From Acidobacteriota bacterium (GTDB taxonomy: Bacteria > Acidobacteriota > UBA6911 > RPQK01 > JAJDTT01), in the NCBI GenBank assembly GCA_028874215.1, contig JAPPLF010000025.1, positions 1-64,000 of the forward strand: a DNA stretch of 64,000 nucleotides, read 5' to 3'. Below, in pieces: positions 5,303 through 46,244 of the stretch (the stretch's first letter is position 1; each line of letters opens with the position of its first letter). Made by a program: the position numbers and the translations under genes. The notes below the pieces were generated by a model that made no database searches, had not been told where the DNA came from, and saw only the letters and a program-made list of their open reading frames with translations.

Positions 5303-5308
5303 GTAGCG

Positions 5309-7240: not shown

Positions 7241-7298
7241 GGGAACGCCGGAAGATTCTGAATTCTAGGTGGACCCTTTTGTACGCTCGTCTGCGTGG

Positions 7299-8759: not shown

Positions 8760-8860
8760 GTGGAAACCCTCCGTGACGCGCCTGTTCCGGCTCGGCCGAA
8801 GTCTACCACCGCTCCGTCACCGGGGTGATAAGATGCCCGGACGGAGGGCACGGGAGAGGC

Positions 8861-9808: not shown

Positions 9809-9815
9809 TCAGGTC

Positions 9816-11168
9816 ATGAAAAGATTTTCGCCTTGGACGATGGTGCTGCTCCTGCTCGTAGCGGACGCCGCGGCCGGTCAGAGGCCGTCCGGTTGGAGAG
9901 CGGGGGTGGCCAGTGTGCCCATCACCCCCAAGGAACCCATCTGGCTGGCGGGATACGGGTCGCGGACGCGCCCTTCGGGAGAGGTCCTTCAGGACATCCA
10001 CGCCAAGGCCCTGGCCCTGGAGGATGAGACCGGTGCAGTCACCGTCCTGGTGACCATCGACCTGCTGGGATTCAGCCGCCTTCTCTCGGACCAGGTCGCG
10101 GAGCGGGCCTGGCAGGAGTTCGGGCTGAGCCGGGACCGCCTCGGCCTGAACTTTTCCCACACCCACAGCGGGCCCGTCACCGGGGAGGTCCTGCGCCCGG
10201 CCTACCCGTTGGAAGAGGAGCACCTCCAGGTTGTCCGCCGCTACACCCGCCGGGTCCTGGACGAAATCGTGAAGGTGATCGGCCAGTCCATGGAAAGGCT
10301 CTCGCCGGCCCGGCTCTCCTTCGGTCAGGGGTCGGCCGGATTCGCCGTCAATCGCCGCCGGGCGCGGACCGGGAAACGCCATCTGCCCGGCCCGGTGGAC
10401 CACGATGTCCCGGTCCTGGCCGTGCGTGGCGTCGACGGCGGGTTGCGGGCCGTGGTCTTCGGATACGCCTGCCACGCCACGGTCCTGTCCGGCTATCAGA
10501 TCAACGGAGACTGGCCCGGGTTCGCCCAGGAATCGGTCCAGGAGAAGCATCCCGGCGCCACCGCGCTGTTCGTCACCGGCTGCGGAGCCGACGCCAACCC
10601 CTTGCCCCGCCGGTCGGTGCAGATGGCCCGGCATTACGGACAGATCCTGGCCTACGCCGTGGATTTGGTGCTGGACACAGAGATGGCGCCGGTCCGGGGA
10701 CCGCTCAAGAGCGCCTTCGAGCGGGTGGCGATCCCCTTCAGCAAGCCCCCTTCCCGCCGTGAGCTGGAAGCCCGGGTCGGACGGGATTCGGGAATGGCCA
10801 GGCGCCACGCCCAATTCCTCCTGGACAGAATCGAGCGGGAGGGGAGGCTGCCCGACAGCTATCCGTACCCGATTCAGGTGTGGCAGTTCGGGAACGACCT
10901 CACCCTGATCCATCTGGCGGGCGAGGTGGTGGTCGAATATTCCCTGCGGCTCAAGGGGGCTCACGGATGGGACAGGGTCTGGGTGGCCGGCTACTCCAAC
11001 GAGGTCTTCGCCTACATCCCGTCCCTGAGGGTCCTCAAGGAGGGCGGCTATGAAGGGGCGGGCGCCATGATCCCGTATGGGCAATCGGGTCCCTTCAGAG
11101 CGCCGGTGGAAGAGATCATCGTGGAAAAGGTGGGCGAACTCGTGAACCGCGGAGCGGCGGCTTTCTAG
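9816..11168 (+). CDS. Secreted neutral/alkaline ceramidase N-terminal domain protein
   Basis: A 450-residue protein with a signal peptide (about residues 1-20). The core matches the neutral/alkaline non-lysosomal ceramidase N-terminal domain: WRAGVASVPITP, LAGYGSR, VLVTIDLLG, then NFSHTHSGP with zinc-ligand candidates H115 and H117, and GYACHATVLSG with another histidine. Later come GCGADANP and YSNEVFAYIPS. It lacks the C-terminal immunoglobulin-like domain of true ceramidases, which are nearer 700 residues. Such short homologs are common and their substrate is unproven. The stop codon TAG lies in the loop of a CGGCGGC/GCCGCCG hairpin, so the last residues (RGAAAF) derive from the repeat. 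Confidence 0.8.
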   Translation: MKRFSPWTMVLLLLVADAAAGQRPSGWRAGVASVPITPKEPIWLAGYGSRTRPSGEVLQDIHAKALALEDETGAVTVLVTIDLLGFSRLLSDQVAERAWQEFGLSRDRLGLNFSHTHSGPVTGEVLRPAYPLEEEHLQVVRRYTRRVLDEIVKVIGQSMERLSPARLSFGQGSAGFAVNRRRARTGKRHLPGPVDHDVPVLAVRGVDGGLRAVVFGYACHATVLSGYQINGDWPGFAQESVQEKHPGATALFVTGCGADANPLPRRSVQMARHYGQILAYAVDLVLDTEMAPVRGPLKSAFERVAIPFSKPPSRRELEARVGRDSGMARRHAQFLLDRIEREGRLPDSYPYPIQVWQFGNDLTLIHLAGEVVVEYSLRLKGAHGWDRVWVAGYSNEVFAYIPSLRVLKEGGYEGAGAMIPYGQSGPFRAPVEEIIVEKVGELVNRGAAAF

Positions 11169-11201
11169 CCGCCGAACAGGAACGGCGATTTCCAATCGCC
11201 G
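11155..11201. repeat. Two short palindromes at the 3' end of the ceramidase-like gene
   Basis: The first (11155-11174) pairs CGGCGGC with GCCGCCG around TTTCTA and supplies the stop codon of the upstream gene. The second (11183-11201) pairs CGGCGATT with AATCGCCG around TCC. Both belong to the same family as the array at 4487-4599. The second unit replaces GG/CC by AT/AT in both arms, keeping the pairing. Confidence 0.75.
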
Positions 11202-11299
11202 AACTCCCGGCGCAGCCATGGCGCAGCACAGAATGGGCGATCTGCAATTCCTCTCTCCAGGTCGCCCCTCCATACCAGGGCGGTAGAATCGGATCATCC

Positions 11300-13810
11300 G
11301 TGAAGCCGAGCTCGATTCTCTTTCGCATCAACCGTTGCATCATCCTGTTTGCCGTGGCCGCTTTAGGCGCCTGCCGCCCGGGCTCCGAGACCGGTCCGTC
11401 CCCAGGACCGCCGGACCTCGAAAAGCGAGAGCTCCGTCCCGGGCTGGCCGCCCGCTACGAAGACGGACGGCATCGCGTTCACCTGGTGACGCCGGCTCCC
11501 CATTTCTACCTGGAGGAAGGGGAGTCCCTGCATCCTTCTCTGGAACGCGGTTTTCAAGCCGAATGGACGGGCATCCTTTCGATTTTTGAGACGGGCCGCT
11601 ATCGATTCGAGGTCGGCGGCCAGTTGGAGGTCGGCGGCAAGGAGGTTGGAGGCGAAGGCGTCACCCTGGCTCCGGGCCGGCATCGCATTCGGCTCAGGTT
11701 TCGCCGTTTGCCGGGGCCGGCCCAACTCCGGCTGCTCTGGGAATCGGAGCATTTTCCGCTGGAGCCGGTCCCTTCCCGGGTCCTGTTCCACGAATCGGAA
11801 AGCGCGCCCGGTTGGGACCAGGGCCCGGTCGAACGGGGCCGGGACCTGGTGGAGAACCTGGGGTGCGTCAACTGCCACGCAAGCGGGTCCGAGTCCCTGG
11901 ATCACCGCCGCGGACCCGGCCTGCACGCCGCCGCCCGCCTGGACCCTGCGTGGCTCCGCCGTTGGCTGCTTGATCCCGCAGCGGTCCGGCCCGAAGCGAC
12001 CATGCCGGCGCTGCTGGACGAGGCGGAAGCCAGGGACGTCACGGCCTACCTCGCTTCGCGGCCGGTCACCGGCCCGCCGGACCGGGTCCCGGACCGGCCG
12101 GCCGTGGACACCGCCCGGGGACGCGGCCTCTACGCCTCTTTGGGGTGCGCCGCATGCCACACGCCGGAGAGTCATGCCCTGGACGGCATCGGGTCCAAGA
12201 TGTCCGCCGCCGGTTTGGCCGCCTACCTGAAGGACCCCTCCCGCCACCATCCGGAAAGCCTCATGCCTTCACTGCATCTGGATGACACGGAGGCGTCTCG
12301 TATTGCCGCCTACCTGACCGATCCGGTACCGGATTCTCCGGAAGAGCCGCTGACGGGCGGCGACGCGGGCCGTGGAGAGGAACTGATCCGGTCCCGGGGA
12401 TGTCTCTCCTGTCACCGGATGGAAGACCGGGAACAACCCGCCGTTCCGGATCGCGGGCCGGCCGTGGCCCATCTCTCCCTCGATGGAGGATGTCTGGCGG
12501 AAAACCCTGGTCCCACTCTTCCCCGGTACCGGCTGGATGGAGAACAGCGGCAGGCGATTCGAGAATTCATTCGCGTTCAACAACGATTCCCCGATGTCAG
12601 TCCCGCGCCGGTCTACGACTTCTACCGGCGGATCCGCCGGCTTCGCTGCACCGCCTGTCACGTCATGGACCACTTCGAAGGCGGGCAGCCGGCCGGGGCG
12701 CCGGTCTTGACTGCGGCGGGGGAGAAGCTGCGGCTCGAATTCCTGAAGGAGGCGCTCCTGGGCAGGGTCGGCCTGCGGAGTTGGATTCCCCTGCGCATGC
12801 CCCGGTTTTCCCGAGACCAGGTGGAGCCGCTGATCCACGGGTTCGCCAAGGCTTCGGGCCTCGACCCATCGGCTCCCGCCGTGGAGTCGGTCGTGTCCCA
12901 GCAGGATACGAACAAGGGACTGACGCTGTTGGGGAAGGATTCGGAGGGGAAGAGCCTGGGCTGCATCGGCTGTCATGACTGGGCGGACTACCGGGCGCAG
13001 GGGGAGCGGGCGCCCCAGTTGGCCCGGGCCGCGGATCGCCTCCGCTATCCGTGGTACCGGCGTTTCATGTTGAATCCGGCCCGGATCCTGTCCGGGACCT
13101 CGATGCCGGAGCACTTCACGGACATCGCGCCGGAGGAGAGGGAAGTGAGCATCCGGAGGATCTGGGGAGCCCTCGGCGTCGGCTCGGGCGGCCGGTTCCT
13201 CCCCGGTCTGGATCCGGCGCCCGATCCCTGGCCGGCCGAAGCCCGTCCGGATCCTTCCCAAGGGGCCGTCGTGGTCCGGACCGTCATGCCGGAGGCGACT
13301 CCGGCGGCCATCGCCGTGGGCCTGCCCGGCGGCCTCTCCTACTGCTTCGACGCCGGCCCGCAACGTCTTCTGTATGCCTGGAGGGGGGCGTTCCTCGACC
13401 TCGAGGCCACCCTGCAACGGAAGACCGGTGACGATGGCTTCACTCTGACCCCCCGGATCCCGGGGACGCGCTTTTTCCGGTCGACCCGTTTCCCGTTCCG
13501 GCTGGCGGATTCCGGACGCATTCCTGAAACGCGTTTCAAGGGCTACCGCCTGCGGGACGGCGTCCCGGAATTCCAATACTCGGTGGGCGGAGCGGAGGTC
13601 TTCGAACTCATTCGCCCCAGCGAAACGAATGGCGGGTTCCGCTGGCGGTTCCGGATCGAACGGGTCCAGGTTCCGCTTCGTTTCGACGCGGGAGTCGAAG
13701 GTCCGATTCGAATCTCGGCGAGCCGGGGTGCCGTGGAGAAGGACAGCGTTCGGATTCGCATCGACGGGGACGCCCGATTCGAGATCCTGGTCGGGAGCAA
13801 AAGGGAATGA
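11300..13810 (+). CDS. Pentaheme c-type cytochrome lipoprotein with PA14-like domain
   Basis: An 836-residue exported lipoprotein (lipobox ALGAC, C25). A PA14-like module lies near residues 85-165 (FQAEWTGILSIFETGRYRFEV, then the RLLWESEHF strand). Five CXXCH heme sites follow, with first Cys at 189, 283, 368, 450 and 555. The first two sit in repeated mono-heme units with WLLDP...MPALLD and YLKDPSR...MPSL, where the methionines are likely axial ligands. The last 200 residues have no heme site. It probably passes electrons in the periplasm. GTG 11300 is the start. The ATGA overlap with the next gene points to coupled translation of the pair. Confidence 0.8.
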   Translation: MKPSSILFRINRCIILFAVAALGACRPGSETGPSPGPPDLEKRELRPGLAARYEDGRHRVHLVTPAPHFYLEEGESLHPSLERGFQAEWTGILSIFETGRYRFEVGGQLEVGGKEVGGEGVTLAPGRHRIRLRFRRLPGPAQLRLLWESEHFPLEPVPSRVLFHESESAPGWDQGPVERGRDLVENLGCVNCHASGSESLDHRRGPGLHAAARLDPAWLRRWLLDPAAVRPEATMPALLDEAEARDVTAYLASRPVTGPPDRVPDRPAVDTARGRGLYASLGCAACHTPESHALDGIGSKMSAAGLAAYLKDPSRHHPESLMPSLHLDDTEASRIAAYLTDPVPDSPEEPLTGGDAGRGEELIRSRGCLSCHRMEDREQPAVPDRGPAVAHLSLDGGCLAENPGPTLPRYRLDGEQRQAIREFIRVQQRFPDVSPAPVYDFYRRIRRLRCTACHVMDHFEGGQPAGAPVLTAAGEKLRLEFLKEALLGRVGLRSWIPLRMPRFSRDQVEPLIHGFAKASGLDPSAPAVESVVSQQDTNKGLTLLGKDSEGKSLGCIGCHDWADYRAQGERAPQLARAADRLRYPWYRRFMLNPARILSGTSMPEHFTDIAPEEREVSIRRIWGALGVGSGGRFLPGLDPAPDPWPAEARPDPSQGAVVVRTVMPEATPAAIAVGLPGGLSYCFDAGPQRLLYAWRGAFLDLEATLQRKTGDDGFTLTPRIPGTRFFRSTRFPFRLADSGRIPETRFKGYRLRDGVPEFQYSVGGAEVFELIRPSETNGGFRWRFRIERVQVPLRFDAGVEGPIRISASRGAVEKDSVRIRIDGDARFEILVGSKRE

Positions 13811-15333
13811 GAGAGACCGGCGCCCTGGCCCTGCTCTGCCTGGCGGCGGCGTGGATCGTTCCCTGCTCCGCCTGGGCGCAGGTTCCCCGGGAGTGCTACC
13901 GGATCGAGACCGTAAAGACTCCGCCGGGAGTGGCGCCGGAGGTGGGCGGGATCGATTTCGACCGGCGCGGCCGGCTGGTGGCCTGTTTTCGCCGCGGGGG
14001 CCTCTTCCGCCGGGATCCGGACTCGGGCCGCTGGAGCCGGTTCGCCACCGGACTGCAGGTCCCGCTGGGAATCGTCGCGGGGAAGCCGGGGGAATACTTC
14101 GTGGCCCAGCAGTCCGAGTTGACGCGGATCGTCGACACCGATGGAGATGGCCGGGCCGATCTCTACCAGACCCTCAGCGACGAATGGGGAATATCGGGCA
14201 ACTACCACGAGTATGCCTACGGCCTGGTCCGGGACGGGGAAGGGAACTTCTACGTGGGGTTGGGACTGGCCTCGGGTTCGAGCCGGCACAAGTTCTCGGG
14301 CCGGGGGCCGGCGACGACCCGGAGCCTGGTCGCCGAAAACCCCAAACCCGGAACCGTGGCCCGGTTGCGGCACAATTCACCCGTTTCCTACCGGGGCTGG
14401 GTGATCAAGATCACCCCCGGCGGAAAATTCGTGCCTCTCGCCTCCGGTTTCCGGCAGCCCAACGGCCTGGGGTTCAACCGGGAGGGGGCGCTGTTCGCCA
14501 CCGACAATCAGGGAGGCTGGATCGGGACGTCTCCTCTTCACCATGTCACGCCCGGATCGTTCTATGGACACCCCTCCTCGCTGAATTGGCATCCGGACTT
14601 CCAGGGCATCAATCCCGTGGACATCGAGGTGGAGAACTTGGCGCGCCGGCGCAAGCCGCCGGCCGTCCAGATTCCTCAGAACGACATGGCCGGATCGCTG
14701 GGACAGCCCTTGGAGGACCGCACCGGAGGCCGGTTCGGTCCGTATGCGGGCCAGATGTTCATCGCCGACTGGACCTATCCCCGGATTCACCGGGTCTTTC
14801 TGGAAAAAGTGGAAGGGACCTGGCAGGGGGCCTGCTTCCCGTTCATCGAGGGGCGCGGGTTGCGCAAGGGAAACATGCGTCTGGCCTTCTCTCCGAAGGG
14901 AGATCTCTACGTGGCGCAGACCTCACGGATCTGGGGAATCGGAGAGGGATTGCAGCGGATGGCCTGGACGGGAAAGATCCCCCTGGACATTCAGGAGATG
15001 CGCCTGAGCGAATCGGGGTTCGACCTCGTATTCACCAAGCCGGTGGACCCGGACACGGCGGCGCTCGCCGACGACTACTCCCTGTTCCACTACTACTACC
15101 GGTACCACGGGGAGTACGGGTCTCCCAAGACCGACGTGACGCCGGTCCGGATCGAGAAGGTGTCCCTATCCGACACTGGACGCCGGGTTTCGCTCCACCT
15201 TTCGGATCCGTTGTTGACGGGACGTGTATACGAACTGCGTCCGGGGCAGGGAATTCGTTCCCAAGACGGCGAACCCCTGGTGACCAGGCTGGCCGCCTAT
15301 ACGGTGAACCGGCTCCGTGTGGGTGCCGAGTGA
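13807..15333 (+). CDS. Secreted six-bladed propeller protein, PQQ sugar-dehydrogenase-like
   Basis: A 508-residue protein with a signal peptide ending near SAWA. Blade motifs run through the first 330 residues: VGGIDFDRRGRLVACFR, LTRIVDTDGDGRADLY, HEYAYGLVRDGEGNFYVGLG, GFRQPNGLGFNREGALFATDNQG and LYVAQTSRIWGIG. These are typical of sorbosone or glucose-dehydrogenase-like propellers from Acidobacteriota and Planctomycetota. The C-terminal 120 residues form a separate beta domain. Its ATG overlaps the TGA of the pentaheme cytochrome gene (ATGA), which suggests the two products work together, the propeller as dehydrogenase and the cytochrome as acceptor. PQQ binding is not demonstrated by any residue I can name. 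Confidence 0.75.
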   Translation: MRETGALALLCLAAAWIVPCSAWAQVPRECYRIETVKTPPGVAPEVGGIDFDRRGRLVACFRRGGLFRRDPDSGRWSRFATGLQVPLGIVAGKPGEYFVAQQSELTRIVDTDGDGRADLYQTLSDEWGISGNYHEYAYGLVRDGEGNFYVGLGLASGSSRHKFSGRGPATTRSLVAENPKPGTVARLRHNSPVSYRGWVIKITPGGKFVPLASGFRQPNGLGFNREGALFATDNQGGWIGTSPLHHVTPGSFYGHPSSLNWHPDFQGINPVDIEVENLARRRKPPAVQIPQNDMAGSLGQPLEDRTGGRFGPYAGQMFIADWTYPRIHRVFLEKVEGTWQGACFPFIEGRGLRKGNMRLAFSPKGDLYVAQTSRIWGIGEGLQRMAWTGKIPLDIQEMRLSESGFDLVFTKPVDPDTAALADDYSLFHYYYRYHGEYGSPKTDVTPVRIEKVSLSDTGRRVSLHLSDPLLTGRVYELRPGQGIRSQDGEPLVTRLAAYTVNRLRVGAE

Positions 15334-17379: not shown

Positions 17380-19017
17380 TCAGTAGAGAACGCTCACCAG
17401 GATGTCCTTCAAGCGCGGCGCCGGGCCGGCCGGGACAAGAATGCGGAAGTGATTGTATCCCGTCTGCAATTGGGTGGGCGAGATGGAATAGCGGAGTTCG
17501 TCCTGGACCCTCTCCGCAGCTTCCAACCGATGACCATTCACTGATATCCGAACTGCCGTCCCCGGGTCCAGGTTTTCCAGTTGCACGCGTGCCTGCACGT
17601 TGGGACGGTTGCCGATGACCGCGTGGTTCAGCGACCGGTCGGCCAGGTACATGGGGACGGTGTAGGTCTTGTCCGGTTCCAGCAACAGTGGGGAAAGTGG
17701 AGAAACAGGCTTCTGCGCCTTGTATTGTTCGAAGTCGTGGATGTACCGCTTGAAGGATTCCCGTCCCACCGGGTCCAGGCTGTAGAGCTTGTCCAGCCTC
17801 TCCAGGCCATTCGGGTCTCCGAGTTCGCGGTATTTCCGGTCGTGGTCCTCGTCGGGAAAGAGATTGAAGAGGTAGATCCCGTCCGCCCCCTGTTTCCAGG
17901 CCGTCAGGGCCTGCGCCCGGAAGGACTCCAGTGATTCGCGTTCCTCTCCCATCATGGACCTGCGGATGCACGGATAGACGGGAACGCCGTAACGGTGAGC
18001 GAGCCGGATGGTCTCCTCCCAGGGCGCCAGAGCCACCTCGCCGATGATCACCAGATCGACCAGGTCTTCGCGGAGCCAGGTCACCAGGTCCAGACCCATG
18101 TCGTGGTTCAATTCGGGCGAGTCCATGACCCGGACTGCGATCAGCAGGGGCCGTCCCCGCTCCCGGGCCCGGGCGTCGGCCATCCTGCGGACGCGACGCA
18201 TCAGCCGGGTCATGGAATCCGTTTCTGCCGGCGTGACCGGTTCTCCCCAGGCGTAGGTCTTGAAATAGGGAGGATGGCGCCAAAAATCGAGTTCCAGGCC
18301 GTCCAGGTCGTAGTTGGAGGCCATCTCCTCCAACACCTGGAAGGTCATGTTCCGGATCGGCTTCCAACTGAAATCGGCGCCGGACCAGTAGCCGTAGGGC
18401 GGCGGCTTCCGGGAGGAACCGAAAAGAGTGCGAGAGTGTTTCCGCTTGAACTTGGAACCCAGGACCGAAAACCGGTCGCTGCTGTCGTGCACGTCGTTCA
18501 TGCGCAGGGTGGCGAAGATCTCGACTCCCTCTTTCCTGCAGTATTCCGTCACGATCTCCAACGGGTCCGTCCCCTGTTCGGCGAATTCGCCGACCGGGTT
18601 CCGAAATCCCTCTCTCGGGAGATCCCGAACCAGGAGCTCGGCGACTTCACTGCGATGGGTGTAGGCGCCGATGCTCTGGGTGGTGCAGTAGAAGATGGAG
18701 TCGACCTGGGTTCCCATGACGGGGATGGTGCGCCGCTCCAGTAGATTTTGCGGCGTGGCCGGCAGGTCCGAGGGAAAGAAGAGAGCATCGTCTCCGTCGT
18801 TGTTGAAGATGAGGCGCCGCTTGCGCCACCGGGCCTTGTGCCTGAGATCTTCGATCTCCCCAGCGCCGCAAACCGTGTCTTTTTCGGCAGGTTGTTCCAA
18901 TCCCGGCGACGAAGCCGCCGGAGAGCAACCCAGGATCGGAACCAGCAGCAGAGCCGCCGCGGCGATGCGGGGCCCAATATGAAGCAATCTCATGAGAACC
19001 GGGGTGAATTCTCTCAT
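17380..19017 (-). CDS. Lipoprotein with TIM-barrel glycosidase-like domain (GHL family)
   Basis: A 545-residue exported lipoprotein (lipobox ILGC, C31). A barrel-like catalytic region follows: LIFNNDGDDALFF, VEIFATLRMNDVHDSS, YDLDGLELDFWRHPPYF, LVDLVIIGEVALAPWEE and GADGIYLFNLF. A C-terminal beta domain comes last. The DGLELDFWRHP motif, with acidic residues at a strand end, fits a glycosidase-like active site. It is a paralog of 49611-51284, from the FNNDG...FFP opening to the C-terminal strands. I chose ATG 19017; ATG 18993 is possible, while the frame upstream to 19110 runs into the divergent promoter. It heads a three-gene operon and is divergent from the PQQ dehydrogenase (92-nt gap). 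Confidence 0.7.
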   Translation of the reverse strand: MREFTPVLMRLLHIGPRIAAAALLLVPILGCSPAASSPGLEQPAEKDTVCGAGEIEDLRHKARWRKRRLIFNNDGDDALFFPSDLPATPQNLLERRTIPVMGTQVDSIFYCTTQSIGAYTHRSEVAELLVRDLPREGFRNPVGEFAEQGTDPLEIVTEYCRKEGVEIFATLRMNDVHDSSDRFSVLGSKFKRKHSRTLFGSSRKPPPYGYWSGADFSWKPIRNMTFQVLEEMASNYDLDGLELDFWRHPPYFKTYAWGEPVTPAETDSMTRLMRRVRRMADARARERGRPLLIAVRVMDSPELNHDMGLDLVTWLREDLVDLVIIGEVALAPWEETIRLAHRYGVPVYPCIRRSMMGEERESLESFRAQALTAWKQGADGIYLFNLFPDEDHDRKYRELGDPNGLERLDKLYSLDPVGRESFKRYIHDFEQYKAQKPVSPLSPLLLEPDKTYTVPMYLADRSLNHAVIGNRPNVQARVQLENLDPGTAVRISVNGHRLEAAERVQDELRYSISPTQLQTGYNHFRILVPAGPAPRLKDILVSVLY

Positions 19018-36666: not shown

Positions 36667-38172
36667 CTATTCGCTCCCCACCACATAGACGGCGTAAAGG
36701 CGAGCGTCTTCCGGGTAAATTCCTTCCCAATTCACGCGGACGCGGATTGGCCCGTCCACGCCTGCCAGTTGGTCCTTGCCGCGCCACGTCACCCGTTGCC
36801 GCAGGCCCGGTTCCTGCAGCGCAATCGAGGCGTCTCCCGAATAACCGGGCAACGGCCGGAGCCGGTGGTCCAGGACCTCGACCCGGAGCTGGCTCTTCTC
36901 CGACAGCCCGGAGGCGTTGACGTAGATCTCCGCTTGCGGGGAATCCAATTCGATCGGCGTGGAGAGGAAATGGGCGCCTTCCGTCCGGGGCGCCGCGGCG
37001 AAATATCCCAGCCGGTCCCGGCCCCAGGTGGCCAGACGGACTCCCGAGGGACTCTCCGGGTTGAACGCGACCCAGATGCTGTACCAGAAGAGGGTCCGGT
37101 CGCCGATGTTCTCGAACCCCTGACCCTGGAGCAGCCGCGGTTCGGCGCCGTCCGGTTCCTCGTAGGAGGGAAGGATCTTGAAGTCGGGGATCGGCTCCTT
37201 GAAGTGGATGGCGTCGGGGCTCACCACCAGGCCCAGGTCGCAGGTGGAGTAGCGCCGGTCGTTGGTCTGGTTGTCGTATTGGCCGTAAAAACCAATGATC
37301 ACGTTGCCCCGGTTCCAGAGGCTGGCCCCCATGTGCACCTGTGCGCCGCGATGGATCTCGAAGTTGTCGAGGGGACGCGGCGGGAGGGGATTCCTCCGGA
37401 AGCTGAGGTGGGCCGCTTCGCTCCAGTGGTCGAAGTCGTGGGAGATGTAAGTGACCATCTTTCGACCCCGGGCCTTGGGGACGGGGTGGGGGATCGGTCC
37501 CCCCTGTCCGTTCAGGTAGTAGAAGCCGTTGAACCGGATCAGGCCGCCCGTCTCCATGCCGCTGCCCTTGATGATGGGGTTGTTGGGAGAATCGGTCCAG
37601 CTCAGCCCGTCCGGGCTGTACGCTGCCATGATGGCTCGCGGGTGCTCCTCCCGGACCATCTTGAAGCGCCGGCCGGGGTCGGGGTCTTCCGGCTCATGGA
37701 GTACCAGGACGAAGACCCCCTTCATGGGGTCCTTGCCGTTTGACAGCACCAGGTTGTTCCGCCGGTTCCCGTTGTACTCGACGAGTCCCAGGTCCGGCTT
37801 GTCCCAGCGGACGCCGTCCCGGGAGACGGCATAGAGGACCTGCCGTTTCCGGTCCTTGTCCCAACCGGAGTACCACATGCGGTACTCCCCATCGATCTTC
37901 AGGACGGTGCCGTAGTAGTAGACCCGCGGGTGGTCCGGGTCTCCCGGCTTGCCCGGAGGGACGACCGGTTTGCTGGGGTGCAGGGGATCGGTTCCGTGCC
38001 CCGTATTGACCGCGCTTTTCTTGCCCGGGACCAGTTCTAGCACCAAACCCTTGCTGAACGGGACGCTGTAGTCGTCAAACGGGAAAAGGACCGTTTCCTT
38101 GCCGGCGCCGGCGCTCGGCTGCAGAGACAGGCCGAGACCGATGAGAACAGCCAAAATCATGCGAAGAGTCAT
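36667..38172 (-). CDS. Secreted glycosidase-like propeller protein (paralog 3)
   Basis: A 501-residue protein with a signal peptide (MTLRMILAVLIGLGLSLQPSAGA). Blade motifs include KIDGEYRMWYSGWDKDRKRQVLYAVSRDGVRWDKPDLGLVEYNGNRRNNL, MAAYSPDGLSWTDSPNNPIIKG and FNGFYYLNGQGG. The C-terminal module (LSTPIELDSPQAEIYVNASG...LRVEVLDHRLRPLPGYS...VRVNWEGIYPEDARLYAVYVV) matches the other three paralogs. ATG 38172 is fixed by GGGAGG upstream. The DNA is divergent from the TPR lipoprotein gene at 38326. Activity unproven. Confidence 0.7.
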   Translation of the reverse strand: MTLRMILAVLIGLGLSLQPSAGAGKETVLFPFDDYSVPFSKGLVLELVPGKKSAVNTGHGTDPLHPSKPVVPPGKPGDPDHPRVYYYGTVLKIDGEYRMWYSGWDKDRKRQVLYAVSRDGVRWDKPDLGLVEYNGNRRNNLVLSNGKDPMKGVFVLVLHEPEDPDPGRRFKMVREEHPRAIMAAYSPDGLSWTDSPNNPIIKGSGMETGGLIRFNGFYYLNGQGGPIPHPVPKARGRKMVTYISHDFDHWSEAAHLSFRRNPLPPRPLDNFEIHRGAQVHMGASLWNRGNVIIGFYGQYDNQTNDRRYSTCDLGLVVSPDAIHFKEPIPDFKILPSYEEPDGAEPRLLQGQGFENIGDRTLFWYSIWVAFNPESPSGVRLATWGRDRLGYFAAAPRTEGAHFLSTPIELDSPQAEIYVNASGLSEKSQLRVEVLDHRLRPLPGYSGDASIALQEPGLRQRVTWRGKDQLAGVDGPIRVRVNWEGIYPEDARLYAVYVVGSE

Positions 38173-38325
38173 GTTTGGGACCTCCCTGATCACGCAGCGC
38201 CAAGTTGTCGAACCTGGCGCCCGAAAACGAACTTTCCAGATATAATCGGAAGCATACAAGGATACGGTTCCCGTCGGCGAATTTCGCGCCCCGAGGCATC
38301 GGGGAGTTTCGGACCCGAGTGAAAA

Positions 38326-39108: not shown

Positions 39109-39224
39109 CCATCAGAGCACCGTAACCGGAAGATCCCACCTTCCAGCTATGCTTTGCTCCGAAAGATAGCTGCGTCTATATTGTTGTGCTTCAGTCGGCA
39201 AGAAGATCCAGAGAAGGAGAATCG

Positions 39225-39986
39225 ATGAGCCTCAAGAGCTTCTTTGACGAGAACGGTTACGTCACCGTGGACAACGTCTTCACTCCTGCGGAAATGGACG
39301 AACTCATGGTCCGGATCGACGGCATGGAAAGAAGGGAGATTCCATACCCCGAAAGCGACATCAAGTGGGAGCCGGCCAATCCTTCCGCGCTCCGCAACGC
39401 CTTCGGGTTGCTGCATCGAGACCCGGTCTTCCGGTCCGTCGCCACGCATCCCAAGCTGGCCGCGGTCGTCGAGCAGATCCTGGGTCCCGACCTGGACATC
39501 TACGCCGACGGACTCTTTGCCAAACCGGCGCTGGACGGGGGCCTGGTCCCGCCCCACCAGGACATGTACTACTGGAGTTTCCAGCCCTTCGAGATGCTCA
39601 CCGCCTGGATCGCGTTGGAGGATGCGACCCGCGAGAACGGATGCCTCACCGTGATCCCCGGGAGCCACAAGTTGGGCCTCCTGGACCACGAGCATTCCAA
39701 CGTGCCCGGGAATACGTGGAAGCTGACCCAGGAGGCTCTGAGCCATCTGGGGGACGAGATTCCGGTGGAGCTGAGCAAGGGGAGCGTTGGATTCCACCAC
39801 TGCCTGACCTATCACCGGAGCGAGCCCAACCGGAGTCCGCATTCCCGGCGCGCCTACACCGTGATCTTCATGACCGGCGAATCCCGCTGGGTGGGAGAGG
39901 AGGACTACCGGTACCCCTTCCTTCACGTTCAGGGCAAACCGTCCCCGGCCTACGAGGCCATGAAGCACGTCCTGGTGGACCGGTAA
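39225..39986 (+). CDS. Phytanoyl-CoA dioxygenase family protein (divergent PhyH)
   Basis: A 253-residue Fe(II)/2-oxoglutarate dioxygenase, only distantly related to the three tandem copies. Metal ligands are H111-Q-D113 and the histidine in LTYHRSEPN (H197). The arginine is in SRRAYTVIF. LEDATRENGCLTVIPGSHKLG is the typical core strand and turn. ATG 39225 is chosen over 39186 because it follows AGAAGGAGAA and starts at the conserved FFDENGYVTVDNVFT. The next gene is the DUF4143 fragment. Substrate unknown. Confidence 0.9.
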   Translation: MSLKSFFDENGYVTVDNVFTPAEMDELMVRIDGMERREIPYPESDIKWEPANPSALRNAFGLLHRDPVFRSVATHPKLAAVVEQILGPDLDIYADGLFAKPALDGGLVPPHQDMYYWSFQPFEMLTAWIALEDATRENGCLTVIPGSHKLGLLDHEHSNVPGNTWKLTQEALSHLGDEIPVELSKGSVGFHHCLTYHRSEPNRSPHSRRAYTVIFMTGESRWVGEEDYRYPFLHVQGKPSPAYEAMKHVLVDR

Positions 39987-40053
39987 GCCGGGAACGCGTG
40001 CCGGGTCCGACCACGCACCCACGAGCGGAGGCATACTCGTTCCTTCGGAATTC

Positions 40054-40731
40054 ATGGACGGTCTCTTTCCTCGGAGTGGATATATCCGGACTTACCTGGA
40101 GCGTGACGTCGCCCTGTTCGGGCCCCGCCTCCCCGCGGAGACGCTGGAGCGCCTTTGGATCATGCTGGCCCACAGCCAGGGAGGCCTGTTGAATGCTTCC
40201 CGGTTGGCTTCGTCATTGGGTGTCAGCGTGCAAACCGTAAATCGCTATATCGGACTCTTGACCGATCTGCTGCTGGTGCGGCGCCTGGCTCCTTTGCACG
40301 CCGATGTCGGGAAAAGGCTGGTGAAATCGCCGAAGATCTACATACGCGACAGCGGCCTGCTGCACGCTCTGCTCGGCATTGGCGATTTCAATGCGCTGGC
40401 CGGCCATCCTGTGGCCGGCGCCAGTTGGGAAGGGTATGTGATCGAGAATCTGCTCGCAGCCGCCCCGGAACGGACGACGGCCAGTTTTTACCGCACTTCC
40501 GCCGGCGCCGAGGTCGATCTCGTGCTTCAGTTGCCGAACGGCGAACTGTGGGCGATCGAGATCAAGCGGGGTCGCGCCCCGAGACCGGACCGCGGCTTTT
40601 ACAACGCCCGCGCGGACCTGCGGCCTGACCATGCGTTCGTCGCGTATTCCGGGGACGAACGCTTCCCGATCAGCGAAGGCGTTGAGGCGATCGGCGTCTT
40701 CGAACTGGCGATGTTGCTTCAGAACGGATGA
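40054..40731 (+). pseudogene. N-terminally truncated DUF4143 ATPase (C-terminal half)
   Basis: 225 residues matching the C-terminal half of AAA/DUF4143 proteins (about 380-400 residues when complete): YIRTYLERDVALFGPRLPAETLERLWIMLAHSQGGLLNASRLASSLGVS, then the winged-helix region and nuclease-like tail VDLVLQLPNGELWAIEIKRGRAPR. The P-loop ATPase half is missing. The frame is open a little further upstream, reading GGILVPSEF like the family's GGFP...SFL, then ends against the PhyH gene. It is most likely an inactive fragment left by a deletion. Confidence 0.75.
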
Positions 40732-41187
40732 CAAGCAGGGAGCGGGTGATCATGATGGAAAGCGACCGGGTCACCACCAGCAAGCAGGCGGCAGTCACCA
40801 TCAGTTGCGCGTCGGCGCGCATCGTGTTGACCAGCGTGATCATCAGCGCGGGCCGAACTACAGTGACCTGTCCCGGATCGTGACGGACTGATCGGAAGGA
40901 ATCGCAAACGATAGGGACACAATAGGTTAGCGTACATCGCACTGAGCGCTGTATCACTTCAGATTCCCGCTTCCGTGCTGGAATCCATGCGGTTGCATCA
41001 GAAGTCACCGGACTTAGCCGTTCGGTCAGGCCGTGGGATTGGCCTCGTGCCGGTTCGCCCCCAAGTGTGACACCCGGCAGATTCCACAAGTCGCTGGCGG
41101 CCTTTCGGTTGCGCCACGGCCAGCGGAGCGCGAATGCCGATCCGCGCTCCCCGTCCCCACCGTCCCCGCGCCCGCCGCCCACCGCGC
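40732..41187. other. 456-nt decayed region between DUF4143 fragment and acyltransferase
   Basis: No intact gene. It contains the fragment of the C69-like peptidase gene at 40821-40884 described separately. The rest, including 40890-41180, matches nothing I recognise. The open frames there are full of Arg and Ser and look non-coding. Confidence 0.6.
40821..40884 (+). pseudogene. Internally deleted relic of the C69-like peptidase gene
   Basis: Bases 40821-40847 match 44826-44852 of the intact gene at 24 of 27 positions. They are followed without a gap by a stretch that matches 45225-45264 with a single mismatch in about 38 bases. The junction is at a shared CAGC, so about 376 bp present in the intact gene are missing here. 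Same orientation as the intact gene. Together they bracket the acyltransferase and P450 genes. Confidence 0.75.
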
Positions 41188-42381
41188 TCAAGTCGCCCTT
41201 CTCGGATAGCGGCGCCCGTTCAGCTGTTTCCCGATGAACGTCGGTCGTACGAAGTAGTGGTAGGTCACCAGGATCAGGCCGGTCGCCATGATCGCGACGA
41301 GCGCGAGCTTGACGATCCCCGGAAGCGGCACGTTTGCCAGAACAAGGGGCAGCAGCATGACGAGCGGCACGTGCACGATGTAGATCCAGTACGAGGCGTC
41401 CGCCAGGTACCGCCAGCGCGGGCTCGGCCTGTCCATGTAGCGCAGGAACAGGCCGATCAGGCTATACGCCATGAACCACATGGAAAGCGCGAGGAAGACG
41501 ACCGCCGGCAGGTGCCCATCGCCAGCTTCCGGGCACGTCCTGTCCGGCCTGGGGGGGCAACCGATCTCGAAGAAGTGCCGGTATACGAAGAAGCACAGGA
41601 TGCCGCCGGCGAGGAGAGCCCATGCGGGGCGCTTGAAGCCCTCCAGCGTCTGCCGTCTGCGAAACAGCAGCCAGCCGAATACGAAGAACAGGGCGTAGAG
41701 TGCCAACTGGCGCGGGGCGGGAAACGGGCCGGCGTAGTAGTCGATGGCCCACGACTCCATCCGGTACAGCAGGAGGCCCGCGGCCAGAATCAGCACCGCG
41801 ATGCCTCCACGGTGCACCCAGCGCTCGAAGAGGTCCATCGCACGGGCGCGCACGCCCGCGGGAATCCGGCCGGCGAGCGCGCTCAGTGCGCTCGCGGCCA
41901 CGCACAGGATCATCAGGTGGTAGAGGAACCACAGATGCAGGAACAGGTGGTCAAGGGCCCTGGACGAGGTCAGTTCCGGAAGACTGTAGGTAGCGTTTGG
42001 CGGGGTGGCGCTGAAGCGGGCCGCGAACGGCACGATGAAGAACATCGTGACCGCAAGGAGGGGCCATGCCGCCAGGAACGGAACCCCGATCCGGCTCCAT
42101 CGGTGCCGGAGGAATTCTCGAGTTCCGCGTGTCTTGAGCAGGTACGCCGCAAAGAATCCCGCAATCGCGAAGAAGACCGGCAGGTTGAATACGCGGATGA
42201 AGATCACCACCCAGTAGGCGAGCATGTCGGCCTGGGGATCCCGGTATGGCCACTCGAAGAAGACCGTGGGCACGTAGCTGACCGCCGCGTGGCGAACCAA
42301 GCCGAGCATCATCATGGACGCGCGCAGCTGGTCGAGGGAGTGATACCGGGGAAGTTTCGCCTGTGGCTGTGTGCCGGTCAC
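41188..42381 (-). CDS. Membrane acyltransferase (acyltransferase-3 / OpgC-like)
   Basis: A 397-residue polytopic protein with about ten membrane helices. The family's N-terminal helix carries a histidine (LGLVRHAAVSYVP). Other acyltransferase-3 features include VFFAIAGFFAAYLL, HRWSRIGVPFLAAWPLL, HLWFLYHLMIL and SYWIYIVHVPLVMLLP. Such enzymes move acyl groups, often succinyl or acetyl, onto glycans, lipids or antibiotics at the membrane. The downstream end faces the decayed region. The P450 gene is 7 nt upstream on the same strand, so the two are probably one transcription unit, and the P450 product could be the acyl acceptor (inference). Confidence 0.85.
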   Translation of the reverse strand: MTGTQPQAKLPRYHSLDQLRASMMMLGLVRHAAVSYVPTVFFEWPYRDPQADMLAYWVVIFIRVFNLPVFFAIAGFFAAYLLKTRGTREFLRHRWSRIGVPFLAAWPLLAVTMFFIVPFAARFSATPPNATYSLPELTSSRALDHLFLHLWFLYHLMILCVAASALSALAGRIPAGVRARAMDLFERWVHRGGIAVLILAAGLLLYRMESWAIDYYAGPFPAPRQLALYALFFVFGWLLFRRRQTLEGFKRPAWALLAGGILCFFVYRHFFEIGCPPRPDRTCPEAGDGHLPAVVFLALSMWFMAYSLIGLFLRYMDRPSPRWRYLADASYWIYIVHVPLVMLLPLVLANVPLPGIVKLALVAIMATGLILVTYHYFVRPTFIGKQLNGRRYPRRAT

Positions 42382-42388
42382 CAGGACT

Positions 42389-44386
42389 TTATGCCGTCGT
42401 CGGGACGTCGTGTGTCCGTCGGTGCAGGATGCGGATGCTGAAACGGACGGGCTGCATGGTCGGGAACGACCTCACGCGCAGCACATGGTCGGGCGCGAGC
42501 GGCTCCAGCACGAGCTCCCTCAGGATCGTAGCCATGGTGAGCGCGAGCTGAACCGGGACGAGACCGGCGCCGAGACATCGGTGGGTGCCGGCCCCGAAGG
42601 GAGCATAGGCGCCGCGCTGCCGGTGTTCGCCGCGAGTCTGCGTGAAGCGGTCGATGTCGAAGCGCTCCGGACCGGGGAAGTACTCTTCGAGCGTGTGCCC
42701 GACCGCCGTACCGATCATGACCTGCGTGCCCGCGCGAACCCTGTGACCTGCGAACTCAAACGAGTTGGCGGTCGTCCGAAGTACGGCGGGCGAAACCGGA
42801 TGGAGCCGCAGGGTTTCCATCGCTACGCGGCGCGTGACATCGAGCCTCTTCAAGCCCACGGCGCTCACGCTGCCCTGATCGAACAGGGCGTCCGCCTCGG
42901 CGGTGATGCGCTCCATGAGCTGCGGCCGCTTGAGCACGTTGTAGATCATGAACGAGCATGTGCTCGCTGTGGTGTCCAGTCCGACCATGTAGGGTGCGAG
43001 CACCGTCAGGGGCAGGTTGGTCTCGGGAAGAAGCTGCGGATCGGCGTCGCGCAGCTCCAGCATCAGGTCGATGAAGTCCGGCCTCGTTCTACGCGGACCC
43101 ACCCTGCGCTTGTGTGCGAGGACTGCCCGGGCCAGCTCGCGGCCTCGCTCGCGTGCGTCGCGGAATCGCGGGAGCTTCATGACGTGCGGAGTCGTCGAAG
43201 CGCCCAGTAGCAGCCCGCCGAGGAGCGTGGACAGCTCGCGCGTGTAGCCCTGCGGCGAATAGTCGGCCATCATGTGACCCATCTGCTCGGCGATCACGTT
43301 CTGGAACGCCGGCAACGCCTCGAACGGCTTCCCCAACGGCCACTTGCCGATCTCGTCGCGCGTGATGTCGACGACCTCTTGTGACCGGTCCCTGATGACC
43401 CGGACTGCGTATCCCTTAGCCTGGGCCCTCCGCGTGGTGACGTGATCGATCCCGTCCATGGTCAGGATCGAGCGTGACGAGTCCATCAGGTTGTGGAAAC
43501 TCGCCATGGGCTCGAGCGATCGGAACACGATCTTTCCGTGCGAGGTGAGGAAATTGGTCGCTTCCGGCCCTGCCATGCACACGAACCGGCGCGAGGGAGC
43601 GCGTATCCTGAAGATCGGGCCCAATTCGCGGTACTGGCGGGAAAGGAAGGCGACCAGTCCCTTCCGCATGGCCAGGCCGTTGCCCAGCAGGGGAAGCCCC
43701 GGCACCACCGGAATTTCTTTCGGTCGCCGAGGCTCCGGACGTGGTTCATCGGGCGCCTCGAGTCCTTCGATCGCCAGGCTCATCGTCCGGCCGATCAGAT
43801 CGATATTCTTCAGCAGATCGATGCGATCCTGGACCTGCACCCGCTCCTCCGATGACAGGATCGTGCGGAATACGCCGCAGACGTTTGCGAGGGCAATGAG
43901 CGCGATGTCCGGCGGGTCGGGAATATCATTGTTGAACAAGATCCGCATGATCCGCAGCTTGGCTTCCTCGACCGGCCGCACGTCAACGGCGGGATAGCGC
44001 CGCGACCGCGACACCGACGGGGCGAGGAACACGAGCCCGTCCGCCTCGGATCTCAGGATGCCGCGCTCAATCAGGCGAGCCAGCGCGGCGCGTCGGATCT
44101 GGTCAGCCTGCCCAGCGATCCGTCCGAGCCAATAGCCCGTGTCGCGCGGCTGGACGTCACTTGCGATCTCGGCGAGCGTGGGATCGAGGATGTCGTCGCC
44201 GAACGGCGTGGGATCCACGAGCACCAGGCGCTTGAGATCGGTGTCGATGCGGTCCTGGAGCGCGAGATCCATCAGCACGGCTCCGGCGAGCGCCAGGTCG
44301 AGTGAGCGGGGGGGCAGGCTGGCGGCCAAATCTCCCCGCTCCTCGTCCAGGACGAGAACCAGGATTTCCTCCGCGAACCTCAGCAT
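42389..44386 (-). CDS. GPP34 (Golgi phosphoprotein 3-like) domain fused to cytochrome P450
   Basis: A 665-residue fusion. Residues 1-205 form a GPP34/GOLPH3-like helical domain: LRFAEEILVLVLDEERGDL, LDLALAGAVLMDLALQDRIDTD, LARLIERGILRSE and IALIALANVCGVFRTIL. After a Pro/Glu/Arg linker (210-226), residues 230-655 are a P450: I-helix VGLDTTAST (468-476), ETLRLHP (E524, R527), PERFDIDRF, and the heme loop F597-GAGTHR-C604-LG. No reductase domain is fused. GPP34 binds phosphoinositide in eukaryotes, so here it may guide the P450 to a membrane lipid. ATG 44386 is preferred; the frame is open to 44485. The acyltransferase follows 7 nt downstream. Confidence 0.85.
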   Translation of the reverse strand: MLRFAEEILVLVLDEERGDLAASLPPRSLDLALAGAVLMDLALQDRIDTDLKRLVLVDPTPFGDDILDPTLAEIASDVQPRDTGYWLGRIAGQADQIRRAALARLIERGILRSEADGLVFLAPSVSRSRRYPAVDVRPVEEAKLRIMRILFNNDIPDPPDIALIALANVCGVFRTILSSEERVQVQDRIDLLKNIDLIGRTMSLAIEGLEAPDEPRPEPRRPKEIPVVPGLPLLGNGLAMRKGLVAFLSRQYRELGPIFRIRAPSRRFVCMAGPEATNFLTSHGKIVFRSLEPMASFHNLMDSSRSILTMDGIDHVTTRRAQAKGYAVRVIRDRSQEVVDITRDEIGKWPLGKPFEALPAFQNVIAEQMGHMMADYSPQGYTRELSTLLGGLLLGASTTPHVMKLPRFRDARERGRELARAVLAHKRRVGPRRTRPDFIDLMLELRDADPQLLPETNLPLTVLAPYMVGLDTTASTCSFMIYNVLKRPQLMERITAEADALFDQGSVSAVGLKRLDVTRRVAMETLRLHPVSPAVLRTTANSFEFAGHRVRAGTQVMIGTAVGHTLEEYFPGPERFDIDRFTQTRGEHRQRGAYAPFGAGTHRCLGAGLVPVQLALTMATILRELVLEPLAPDHVLRVRSFPTMQPVRFSIRILHRRTHDVPTTA

Positions 44387-44813
44387 CGTGTGCCCCCACC
44401 CGCAGGGACCCTCGATGAACCGGTCGTATGGCAGGGGCCGAAGTGCCTCAAGAAGATGGTCATTGGCACCTCGTACATCTTGCAAGACAAGATATCACGA
44501 TACCGAAACCCATAGGCGCGGAGTTGTGAAAATATGGCGATCAGGAAGTGGGGGCTGTCCCAATCATAGTTGGAGGTTGAGGTGGCTCCCGGGCATTTCA
44601 TGCTACGATGCGAACTGCTCGATCCTCGCCTTGCCATCCTTTTCGCTCAGCTTCCATGCCGCCCGCAGAACCGGCCGCGCCTGGTCGTGCAGCGTCTTCG
44701 GCAAGTGGCCAGGAACGTTGCGCATCTTGTGGATCCGGCAGCGCTGCACCCGGCGCGCCTCCCCTTTTTTTGTCAGGATTGTGCCGGCCGCCAACAAGAA
44801 TGAGGACACTGCC
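44387..44813. other. Intergenic region upstream of the P450 and C69-like genes
   Basis: This 427-nt divergent gap contains a transposase relic (44603-44752) and otherwise no gene I recognise. Promoters for both flanking genes must lie here. The DNA from 44490 to 44600 is less GC-rich than its surroundings. Confidence 0.5.
44603..44752 (-). mobile_element. Relic of an IS256/Mutator-type transposase
   Basis: Minus-strand codons read RVQRCRIHKMRNVPGHLPKT and continue LHDQARPVLRAAWKLSEKDGKARIEQFAS, then stop. This matches the (R)CxxHKxRNV region of IS256-family transposases, whose full length is about 400 residues. Both ends are missing, so only about 50 codons remain. It shows that an IS once sat here, beside the P450 gene. 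Confidence 0.6.
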
Positions 44814-46244
44814 ATGAGAGTACGTATCGTGCTGACCAGTTTGATCATCAGCCTTGCCAACGGCACCAGTGCCGTGGCCAGCTATGCCATCTACGTGGGG
44901 AAGAACCTGACCCGAGACGGCAGTGTCTTCCTCGGGGGATACGGCGACGAGCCGTCCAGCCATTGGTTGGAGATCGTGCCTCGCCGGACGCATCCCCCCG
45001 GATCCACTCTGACGGTGGGAGCGACTCCGGAATCCCGTTATCCCGGCGAACTCATTCAGATCCCGCAGGCGCCCATCACGTTTCGCTACCTGACCATGAA
45101 CTATTCCTACTTCGCGGGTTTCCCGGCGCCCCTCACCAACGGCGGCCTGAACGAGCATGGCGTCGCCGCCCGGGACGTGTCGTCGGGCTCCCGGATCGAG
45201 CTGCGGGAGATGACGCCCAATCCACAGCGCGGGCCGAACTACAGCGACCTGTCCCGGATCGTGATGGAACGGGCCCGCAGCGCGCGCGAGGCCGTCCGGA
45301 TCGTGGGCGACCTGATCGGCGAGTACGGCTTCTCCACCTACGGAGGCAACTCCCACTTGTTCGCCGACGCCGACGAGGGATGGATCCTGATCAACTTCGC
45401 GGGCGGTCAGGGCCTCTGGATCGCCGAGCGATTGGGACCGGACGACATCCGGGTTTCTCGTGGGGGCTACATCCATGAGGTGCCGCTCAACTACCGGGAG
45501 CATCCCGGCTTCATGGGATCCGCGAATCTGATTTCATTCGCCGTGGAACGGGGCTGGTTCGACCCGGACTCGGGAGAACCCTTTCACGTGGGAAAGGTGT
45601 ACGGACATTCGGCCGAAAAGGCCGCAGCGGTCCAGATGATCGAGGATCGCCTGCGGGCCCGGGCCGGCCGAATCGGACTGCCGGACATGATCGAGGTGGT
45701 CAGGACTCCGGAACTGACTCGCGATTCCGCCGGTTACGGTCAGGTGGCCCACCTGCGGAAAGGACTCCACCAGGAGTTGGAGACCTTGTGGGTGGCGCCG
45801 GCCCCTCCGGTAGCGGCGCCGTTCGTCCCCTACCGTATCGGCGTGCGGGACGTGCCGCCCGAATTCAAGAGGCACCGCTACCTCACCGCAGGCGAGGCCA
45901 CCCGCCACATCAGGGACCATCACATGGGGCCGGAATCGACGCGGTACGCGTTCCGCGCCTGCAAGCGCCTGTTCTATCTGGCCAAATCGCACGAGGAGAA
46001 ATTCCTGCCGGAGGTCGTGGAAGCCTTGACCGCCTTCGAGTCCCGGCTGATCGACGAGCAGGCCGCGGTGGAGGGAATCGCGCTGGCGCTCTTGCAGGCC
46101 GGTGAACGGGTTCTGGCCCAGGATGCCCTCACCTACTACAGCCGGACCGAAGCTCTGAATGGCCTCAGATTGGTGGAAGCCTTGTCCGAGGGTCTTGAGG
46201 CGCGCACCAAGGTGCTGTTCGGAATCCGCTCGGCGGATCCCTGA
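44814..46244 (+). CDS. Peptidase C69 (dipeptidase)-like secreted protein with Ser at nucleophile position
   Basis: A 476-residue exported protein. After a signal peptide (MRVRIVLTSLIISLANGTSAVA) the mature chain would begin S23-YAIYVGKNLTRDGSVFLGGYGDEPSSHWLEIVP. The C69 family has a catalytic Cys at this mature N-terminus; here it is Ser. Family features continue: NYSYFAGFPAPLTNGGLNEHGVAARDV, GPNYSDLSRIVMERARSAREAV, YGFSTYGGNSHLFADADEGW. ATG 44814 follows TGAGGAC. A short relic of the same gene lies 4 kb upstream at 40821-40884. Activity may be lost or serine-based; I cannot decide. Confidence 0.8.
   Translation: MRVRIVLTSLIISLANGTSAVASYAIYVGKNLTRDGSVFLGGYGDEPSSHWLEIVPRRTHPPGSTLTVGATPESRYPGELIQIPQAPITFRYLTMNYSYFAGFPAPLTNGGLNEHGVAARDVSSGSRIELREMTPNPQRGPNYSDLSRIVMERARSAREAVRIVGDLIGEYGFSTYGGNSHLFADADEGWILINFAGGQGLWIAERLGPDDIRVSRGGYIHEVPLNYREHPGFMGSANLISFAVERGWFDPDSGEPFHVGKVYGHSAEKAAAVQMIEDRLRARAGRIGLPDMIEVVRTPELTRDSAGYGQVAHLRKGLHQELETLWVAPAPPVAAPFVPYRIGVRDVPPEFKRHRYLTAGEATRHIRDHHMGPESTRYAFRACKRLFYLAKSHEEKFLPEVVEALTAFESRLIDEQAAVEGIALALLQAGERVLAQDALTYYSRTEALNGLRLVEALSEGLEARTKVLFGIRSADP

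What the first reader, a model, noticed from the sequence alone, without database searches (positions are those of the whole stretch)
40821..46244. C69 relic and intact C69-like gene bracket the acyltransferase-P450 pair
A 64-nt piece at 40821-40884 matches two separated parts of the intact gene at 44814 (44826-44852 and 45225-45264), joined at a shared CAGC. Same orientation as the intact gene. Between them lie acyltransferase and P450; next to them are a truncated DUF4143 gene and an IS256 relic. This fits an insertion or duplication event in which the P450 cassette came in and the left copy decayed.
Basis: partly seen in the sequence, partly recalled or inferred. Interest (0 to 1): 0.55.

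Follow-up and report, generated by a model that had tools for sequence, protein, structure and literature searches.

The report
Gene scar at an insertion hotspot
In a bacterium related to uncultured Acidobacteriota, a short broken copy of a peptidase gene marks where extra DNA carrying an acyltransferase and a P450 enzyme came to lie next to the intact gene, at a spot where a related species carries other extra genes; this is ordinary bacterial gene gain.

Summary
The relic is real. Window 40818-40847 matches 44823-44852 (26/30) and 40844-40887 matches 45225-45268 (42/44); the pieces share one CAGC, consistent with a 376-bp deletion between CAGC repeats. A search of the own genome found no third copy. 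In two congeners (G002, G003) an intact AAA_14-DUF4143 gene runs through the same linker straight into a C69 gene (G003's is cut by its contig end) with no P450 cassette, so the relic is the positional equivalent of their C69 5' end. The window's intact C69 has a different 5' end, shared with a third congener (G001): two 5' types now bracket the acyltransferase/P450 segment. The segment is absent from this interval in the three held congeners and is tetranucleotide-atypical. In G001 the interval holds a ~14-kb defence island bracketed by copies of the PhyH 3' end. So the PhyH-C69 interval looks like an insertion hotspot, and the window shows an insertion scar. Insertion with a decayed left copy is the best reading, but which side is the newcomer is unsettled, because the DUF4143 block also shows interspecies transfer. 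The 'P450' is a GPP34-P450 fusion. This is ordinary genome plasticity; interest is low.

The parts
39186..39986 (+). PhyH (phytanoyl-CoA dioxygenase) gene, left conserved border of the variable interval
   Evidence: Pfam PF05721 E 3.8e-42; 90-96% nt identical to G001-G003
40054..40731 (+). DUF4143 ORF, 5'-truncated remnant of a 389-aa AAA_14-DUF4143 ATPase gene; about 563 bp missing (against G002) at the 40081/40083 junction, one TATCC retained
40732..40817 (+). linker between DUF4143 and the relic, shared with G002 and G003 where it supplies the likely start of their C69 gene
40818..40887 (+). C69 relic: 30 nt from codon 4 on, joined at a shared CAGC to nt 403-446 (counted from 44823) of the same gene; 376-bp internal deletion, frameshifted
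40888..41187 (.). stretch without C69 similarity; 41088-41150 resembles a piece of G003:C128 (87%)
41188..42381 (-). acyltransferase-3 family membrane protein (weakly MdoC-like)
   Evidence: Pfam PF01757 E 4.9e-26; NF003014 156.3 bits, below cut-off 338; best other match in 60 genomes 38% (G005)
42389..44485 (-). GPP34-cytochrome P450 fusion protein (698 aa)
   Evidence: Pfam GPP34 E 5.6e-36 at residues 38-235 and p450 E 2.2e-50
44609..44752 (-). IS256-type transposase fragment (profile 210-258 of 338)
   Evidence: NCBIfam NF033543 E 4.9e-6, far below cut-off; 44480-44822 has no other match in 9 genomes searched
44790..44822 (+). native-type C69 leader and first codons; of the four genomes shared with G001 only
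44814..46244 (+). intact C69-like peptidase gene (476 aa), right border; the first ~54 nt from codon 4 differ from G003 far more than the rest
   Evidence: Pfam PF03577 E 1.9e-17

Best explanation
The interval between the PhyH and C69 genes is an insertion hotspot in this genus. The ancestor of the window strain carried PhyH, AAA_14-DUF4143, linker, C69 (as G002 and G003 do). A DNA piece from a strain with the native-leader C69 5' end, carrying the acyltransferase, the GPP34-P450 and an IS256 fragment upstream of that 5' end, recombined by homology in the first part of C69 (breakpoint about 44876). A single crossover with a circular molecule, or a one-ended homology-anchored event with an illegitimate left joint, gives the observed order: old C69 5' end on the left, cargo, new C69 5' end fused to the resident body on the right. 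The redundant left copy then lost 376 bp between CAGC repeats and decayed. Shown: the relic, the site without the cassette in congeners, two 5' types, a divergence step in C69 against G003. Inferred: the direction, the donor, the circular or linear form, the order of events.
For: G002 and G003 are colinear with window 40083-40847 (92.5% and 90.2%) and then with 44823 onward, without the cassette; no acyltransferase or GPP34-P450 match in the stretches held of this locus in G001-G003. The right copy shares its leader with G001, the left relic its linker with G002/G003. Window C69 vs G003: 10/54 differences in the first 54 nt from codon 4, 52/1022 in the rest, Fisher p 0.0006; change point at nt 53, 26 of 1000 permutations as strong. 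Cassette 41188-44485: 0 of 74 equal-length stretches of 90 kb of own sequence deviate as much in tetranucleotides, the P450 ORF 0 of 122. Acyltransferase: best other match in 60 genomes 38%. P450 fusion: best other matches 58% over a contig-end fragment in G003, 45% in the own genome, 46% in another genus. Same kind of scar in G001: two PhyH 3' copies with 2/109 differences bracket a ~14-kb defence island.
Against: The DUF4143 block does not follow the flanks: at fourfold sites window-G003 differ 23/117 against 86/706 in flanking genes (p 0.038), window-G002 only 10/118 against 107/408 (p 1.6e-5), so the left block may be the newcomer. G003 rather than the window could carry the replaced C69 5' end. 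The acyltransferase alone is not composition-atypical (11% of 219 stretches deviate as much), and GC and third-position GC are ordinary. The tetranucleotide background is small and includes the cassette. The change-point test is modest (26 of 1000), and signal-peptide-like codons vary anyway.
Confidence: 0.52

Rival explanations
1. The left side is the newcomer. The cassette sat (or arrived earlier) upstream of a native-leader C69; a transferred block ending in DUF4143-linker-C69 5' fragment landed between PhyH and the cassette, and its C69 tail is the relic. In G003 the same kind of block replaced the C69 5' end by homologous recombination.
For: The DUF4143 block is closer to G002 and G001 than to the sister G003 at fourfold sites, against the flanks; G001 and G002 blocks are 96% identical while their other compared stretches are 84-90%. 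The 5' divergence step between window and G003 can equally lie on the G003 side.
Against: The first 54 nt of C69 in G003 are no closer to G002 (7/54) than the body is (127/1022), so no sign of a G002-like import there; the window copy has the larger excess toward G001 (12/54 against 129/1022). Both leanings are weak. It needs separate events for the cassette and for the block.
Confidence: 0.27
2. The ancestor had two C69 5' ends in tandem with cargo between, and G002 and G003 lost the cargo by recombination between the two copies; the window keeps the old state with a decayed left copy.
For: Collapse between direct repeats is a common event (general knowledge); it would yield the linker-C69 junction of G002/G003.
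Against: Needs parallel collapses (G002 and G003) and loss of the left copy in G001; the cassette genes are not found at this locus in the three congeners.
Confidence: 0.1
3. IS256-mediated (composite transposon) insertion of the cassette.
For: A transposase fragment lies at the right end of the cassette.
Against: Only about 48 codons of one IS were found; 44480-44822 has no second match in the own genome or in 8 others, so no left copy; and the flanking duplication is of gene 5' ends of different types, not a short target duplication.
Confidence: 0.05
4. Misassembly joined two strains' sequences.
For: The three congeners are titled MAGs, and the own genome is in 113 contigs, so it may be one too; the two halves resemble different congeners.
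Against: The longest exact word shared by left and right C69 pieces is 20 nt, short for an assembly join; the relic carries its own substitutions and deletion; PhyH and C69 on both sides match the sister G003 at 93.5-96%.
Confidence: 0.06

Closest known systems
Chromosomal hotspots of horizontal gene transfer (PMC5635113; title and abstract start seen in a search listing)
   Same: Conserved border genes with different accessory cargo in related genomes; here PhyH and C69 border a cassette, a defence island, or only AAA_14-DUF4143
   Different: Only four genomes of one genus are held, so turnover is seen but not quantified; no tRNA found in the window
Homology-facilitated illegitimate recombination (PMC3240628; listing and one abstract passage seen)
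   Same: One homologous joint (C69) and one apparently non-homologous joint (left)
   Different: The relic holds C69 sequence downstream of the inferred crossover, which fits a circular donor or unequal exchange better than a simple linear donor
Transformation-generated merodiploids in pneumococcus (PMC3784515; 12 passages seen)
   Same: Partial duplication left by recombination with taken-up DNA, one copy free to decay
   Different: There duplications of 3 kb to over 900 kb are observed directly; here only a decayed scar is left

Membership tests
insertion hotspot between conserved genes | same border genes conserved in related genomes | tested here: met
   PhyH and C69 colinear in G000-G003; the gene after C69 also in G001 and G002, while the G003 contig ends inside C69
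insertion hotspot between conserved genes | different cargo in different genomes | tested here: met
   window: acyltransferase and GPP34-P450; G001: ~14-kb defence island; G002, G003: AAA_14-DUF4143 only; four genomes only
homology-facilitated illegitimate recombination | homologous joint on one side | tested here: inconclusive
   divergence step near 44876 against G003, but it may lie on the G003 side
homology-facilitated illegitimate recombination | non-homologous joint on the other side | tested here: inconclusive
   C69 similarity stops at 40887; the original joint is blurred by decay
IS256 composite transposon | two IS copies flanking the cargo | tested here: not met
   one fragment only; no second match of 44480-44822 in the own genome
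peptidase family C69 (right-hand gene) | family profile above cut-off | tested here: met
   PF03577 63.8 bits against 23; the NCBIfam C69_fam_dipept equivalog is not reached (58.7 of 250)
cytochrome P450 | family profile above cut-off | tested here: met
   PF00067 172.2 bits against 22.8
GPP34 | family profile above cut-off | tested here: met
   PF05719 124.9 bits against 29.1
GPP34 | phosphoinositide binding (recalled for the eukaryotic members) | not testable with these tools
   needs a binding assay

The most novel reading that the evidence does not exclude
The PhyH-C69 interval is an integration site of a kind not yet described, where incoming islands regenerate the end of a bordering gene (PhyH 3' end in G001, C69 5' end in the window) and leave the old end as a scar, so that cargo as different as a defence island and a GPP34-P450 pair enters by the same route.
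Probability: 0.08. Interest if true: 0.5.

Novelty: new member of a known kind. Interest (0 to 1): 0.22.

Why it matters
It gives a readable scar of gene gain in a genus of largely uncultured bacteria, and suggests that border-gene fragments can mark insertion hotspots where no tRNA is found. It may help to find further cargo (here a defence island and an unusual GPP34-P450 protein) at the same locus in other species. It changes no general idea.

Tried and rejected
Further C69 remains in 40888-41190: none above shuffles. A repeat family made of the 64 nt: rejected, no third match in the own genome. An IS256-borne cassette: poorly supported. The linker peptide as an AbrB/MazE-type start, an idea from its look: no Pfam match at E up to 10 for three short versions (28-32 aa, so a weak test). 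Conserved acyltransferase plus P450 pairing: no acyltransferase match in the stretches held around 15 other GPP34-P450 places and 1 GPP34 fragment; 11 of the 15 stretches reach only 1.5 kb to each side. GC content and third-position GC: not informative. Intergenic distances between window and G003 (14/80, 11/66, 16/98, linker 17/86) are alike, so the linker alone does not show transfer. Literature on a bacterial GPP34-P450 fusion: three searches (3 papers, 20 listed of 33, none) gave no paper whose title or abstract start deals with such a fusion. Many of the listed GPP34 papers concern insecticidal proteins. No paper was read in full. No structure was predicted; a sequence comparison with the PDB gave 309 matches, and in the 60 rows shown the best stretch lies in the P450 part.

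Rows left out of counts: the fourfold-site comparison used TPR, PhyH, C69 (after the first 54 nt) and the upstream gene at 36670-38259 for window-G003 but only TPR, PhyH and C69 for window-G002 and G001-G002; the omitted rows (window-G002 63/245 and 61/219; G001-G002 21/113 and 39/223) show the same high divergence. The gene at 46498 was left out for G003, whose contig ends before it.
Full report
What was claimed.

The two matches are 40818-40847 to 44823-44852 (26/30) and 40844-40887 to 45225-45268 (42/44), sharing one CAGC. In the intact gene the two CAGC sites lie 376 bp apart, and the corresponding positions in three congeners lie 376 bp apart as well, although in G001 the first site reads CAGT. 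Shuffles of the left sequence do not reach either score (0 of 300 each), and the sequence after 40887 has no C69 similarity above shuffles. The own genome gave no further match at E <= 0.001. The deletion is not a multiple of three, so the relic is out of frame.

The site in related genomes. The window is contig C25 of a 5.7-Mb genome, G000. Three congeners are held: G001, G002 and G003, whose contigs agree in length with the named records JAJDTT010000304.1, CATOST010000033.1 and JAPOYZ010000459.1; the first two are titled Acidobacteria/Acidobacteriota MAGs and the third a Candidatus Aminicenantes MAG. Of 31 genomes searched, 8 including the own have a C69 match, one in each of the four congeneric genomes. 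G003 is nearest to the window (93-96% in the upstream stretch, PhyH and the C69 stretches); G001 and G002 are at 83-91% outside the short PhyH tail (79% and 86%), the DUF4143 block and the linker.

In G002 and G003 window 40083-40847 (DUF4143, linker, first 30 nt of C69) is colinear at 92.5% and 90.2%, and runs directly into a C69 gene that matches 44823 onward; in G003 the contig ends at 361 of 476 residues of C69. There is no acyltransferase or P450 there. The left relic is therefore the positional equivalent of the C69 5' end of these two genomes. Their C69 frame is open back into the linker (MIEGDRVTTSKQ... in G002). The intact window gene instead has a leader and start like those of G001 (44790-44822). 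So the two sides of the cassette carry two different C69 5' ends. A plain duplication of one segment does not give that; recombination between two alleles does.

A divergence step supports this. Between window and G003 the first 54 nt from codon 4 differ at 10 sites and the next 1022 nt at 52 (Fisher p 0.0006; change point at nt 53, 26 of 1000 permutations as strong); none of the other five pairs shows a significant step (lowest p 0.059). The step can mean that the window took in a foreign 5' end with the cassette, or that G003 did with its DUF4143 block. First-54-nt distances (G002-G003 7/54, window-G001 12/54) lean weakly to the former.

Against a simple reading, the DUF4143 block is not vertical. 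At fourfold sites in DUF4143, window-G003 differ at 23/117 against 86/706 in four flanking genes (p 0.038), and window-G002 at 10/118 against 107/408 in three flanking genes (p 1.6e-5); G001-G002 at 7/125 against 106/413 (p 1.7e-7) (rows left out are told under Tried and rejected). This block has probably moved between species, and it may be the newcomer in the window too. I give the cassette-incoming reading 0.52 and the block-incoming reading 0.27.

The DUF4143 truncation. G001, G002 and G003 carry 389-aa AAA_14-DUF4143 proteins with both Pfam domains. The window has lost about 563 bp (G002 coordinates), apparently between two TATCC words (read by eye), which removes the AAA_14 part and a palindromic leader that the three congeners share.

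The cassette. Of 60 genomes, 8 including the own match the acyltransferase at E 1e-20, best 38% outside itself. The other ORF is a fusion of a GPP34 domain and a P450. Of 396 genomes of the phylum, 78 match it at E 1e-20; only two candidates per genome were scored, so counts are lower bounds. Matches spanning both domains appear in 16 of the 396: G000, G001, G003, G222 and 12 genomes of one other genus (g78, another family); the rest match by the P450 part or the GPP34 part alone. Pfam confirmed both domains for the own C64 and C92 paralogs and for G001:C279. The cassette is tetranucleotide-atypical: 0 of 74 stretches as deviant, although the background is only 90 kb of own sequence, includes the cassette itself, and two of its three stretches were fetched for their P450 paralogs; the acyltransferase alone is not atypical (11% of 219 stretches).

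A hotspot. In G001 the PhyH gene is followed by a ~14-kb island with a PLD-SNF2 helicase, a type IIG/ISP restriction-methylase, GajA-like and GajB-like proteins and a PDC-S68 protein, then by a second PhyH 3' end (2 differences in 109 from the first) and AAA_14-DUF4143, followed by a third, diverged PhyH piece. So in two of four genomes cargo lies in this interval next to a partial copy of a border gene: PhyH 3' end in G001, C69 5' end in the window. ARAGORN found no tRNA gene in the window and no Rfam family reached its gathering score in 39900-45000.

Mechanism. A single crossover between the resident C69 and a circular molecule carrying another C69 5' end, or an event with one homologous and one illegitimate joint as described for competent bacteria and for conjugation (PMC3240628, abstract passage), would give the order seen. 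The relic includes C69 sequence downstream of the inferred crossover, which favours a circular donor or unequal exchange. This is inference; the donor is unknown.

Verdict. A real scar of gene gain at a variable locus. Ordinary in kind, fairly well resolved in detail, with the direction of transfer open.

Noticed in passing
window 42389-44485 (-): GPP34-cytochrome P450 fusion protein; same two-domain layout elsewhere in the own genome (C64 45%, C92 34%), in G001, G003, G222 and 12 genomes of another genus (g78). Three paper searches gave no listed paper dealing with such a fusion in title or abstract start.
   Followed up: partly
L119 (G001:C172:35000-51000), 941-15062: Defence island at the same locus in a congener: PLD-SNF2 helicase, type IIG/ISP restriction-methylase, GajA/GajB-like pair, PDC-S68 protein, bracketed by PhyH 3' ends.
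   Followed up: partly
G001, G002, G003 upstream of AAA_14-DUF4143 (e.g. L041 about 17425-17465): Perfect or near-perfect palindrome (ATCCTTGTAAATT.. / ..AATTTACAAGGAT) overlapping the start codon, with a compensating pair change in G002; possible autoregulatory operator. Lost in the window.
   Followed up: no
L043/L044 (G002, G003): C69 frame is open back into the former intergenic linker, giving a likely new N-terminus in front of the signal-peptide-like stretch.
   Followed up: partly
window 41088-41150: 63-nt piece 87% identical to G003:C128:302-364, outside the genes described here; possible small dispersed sequence.
   Followed up: no
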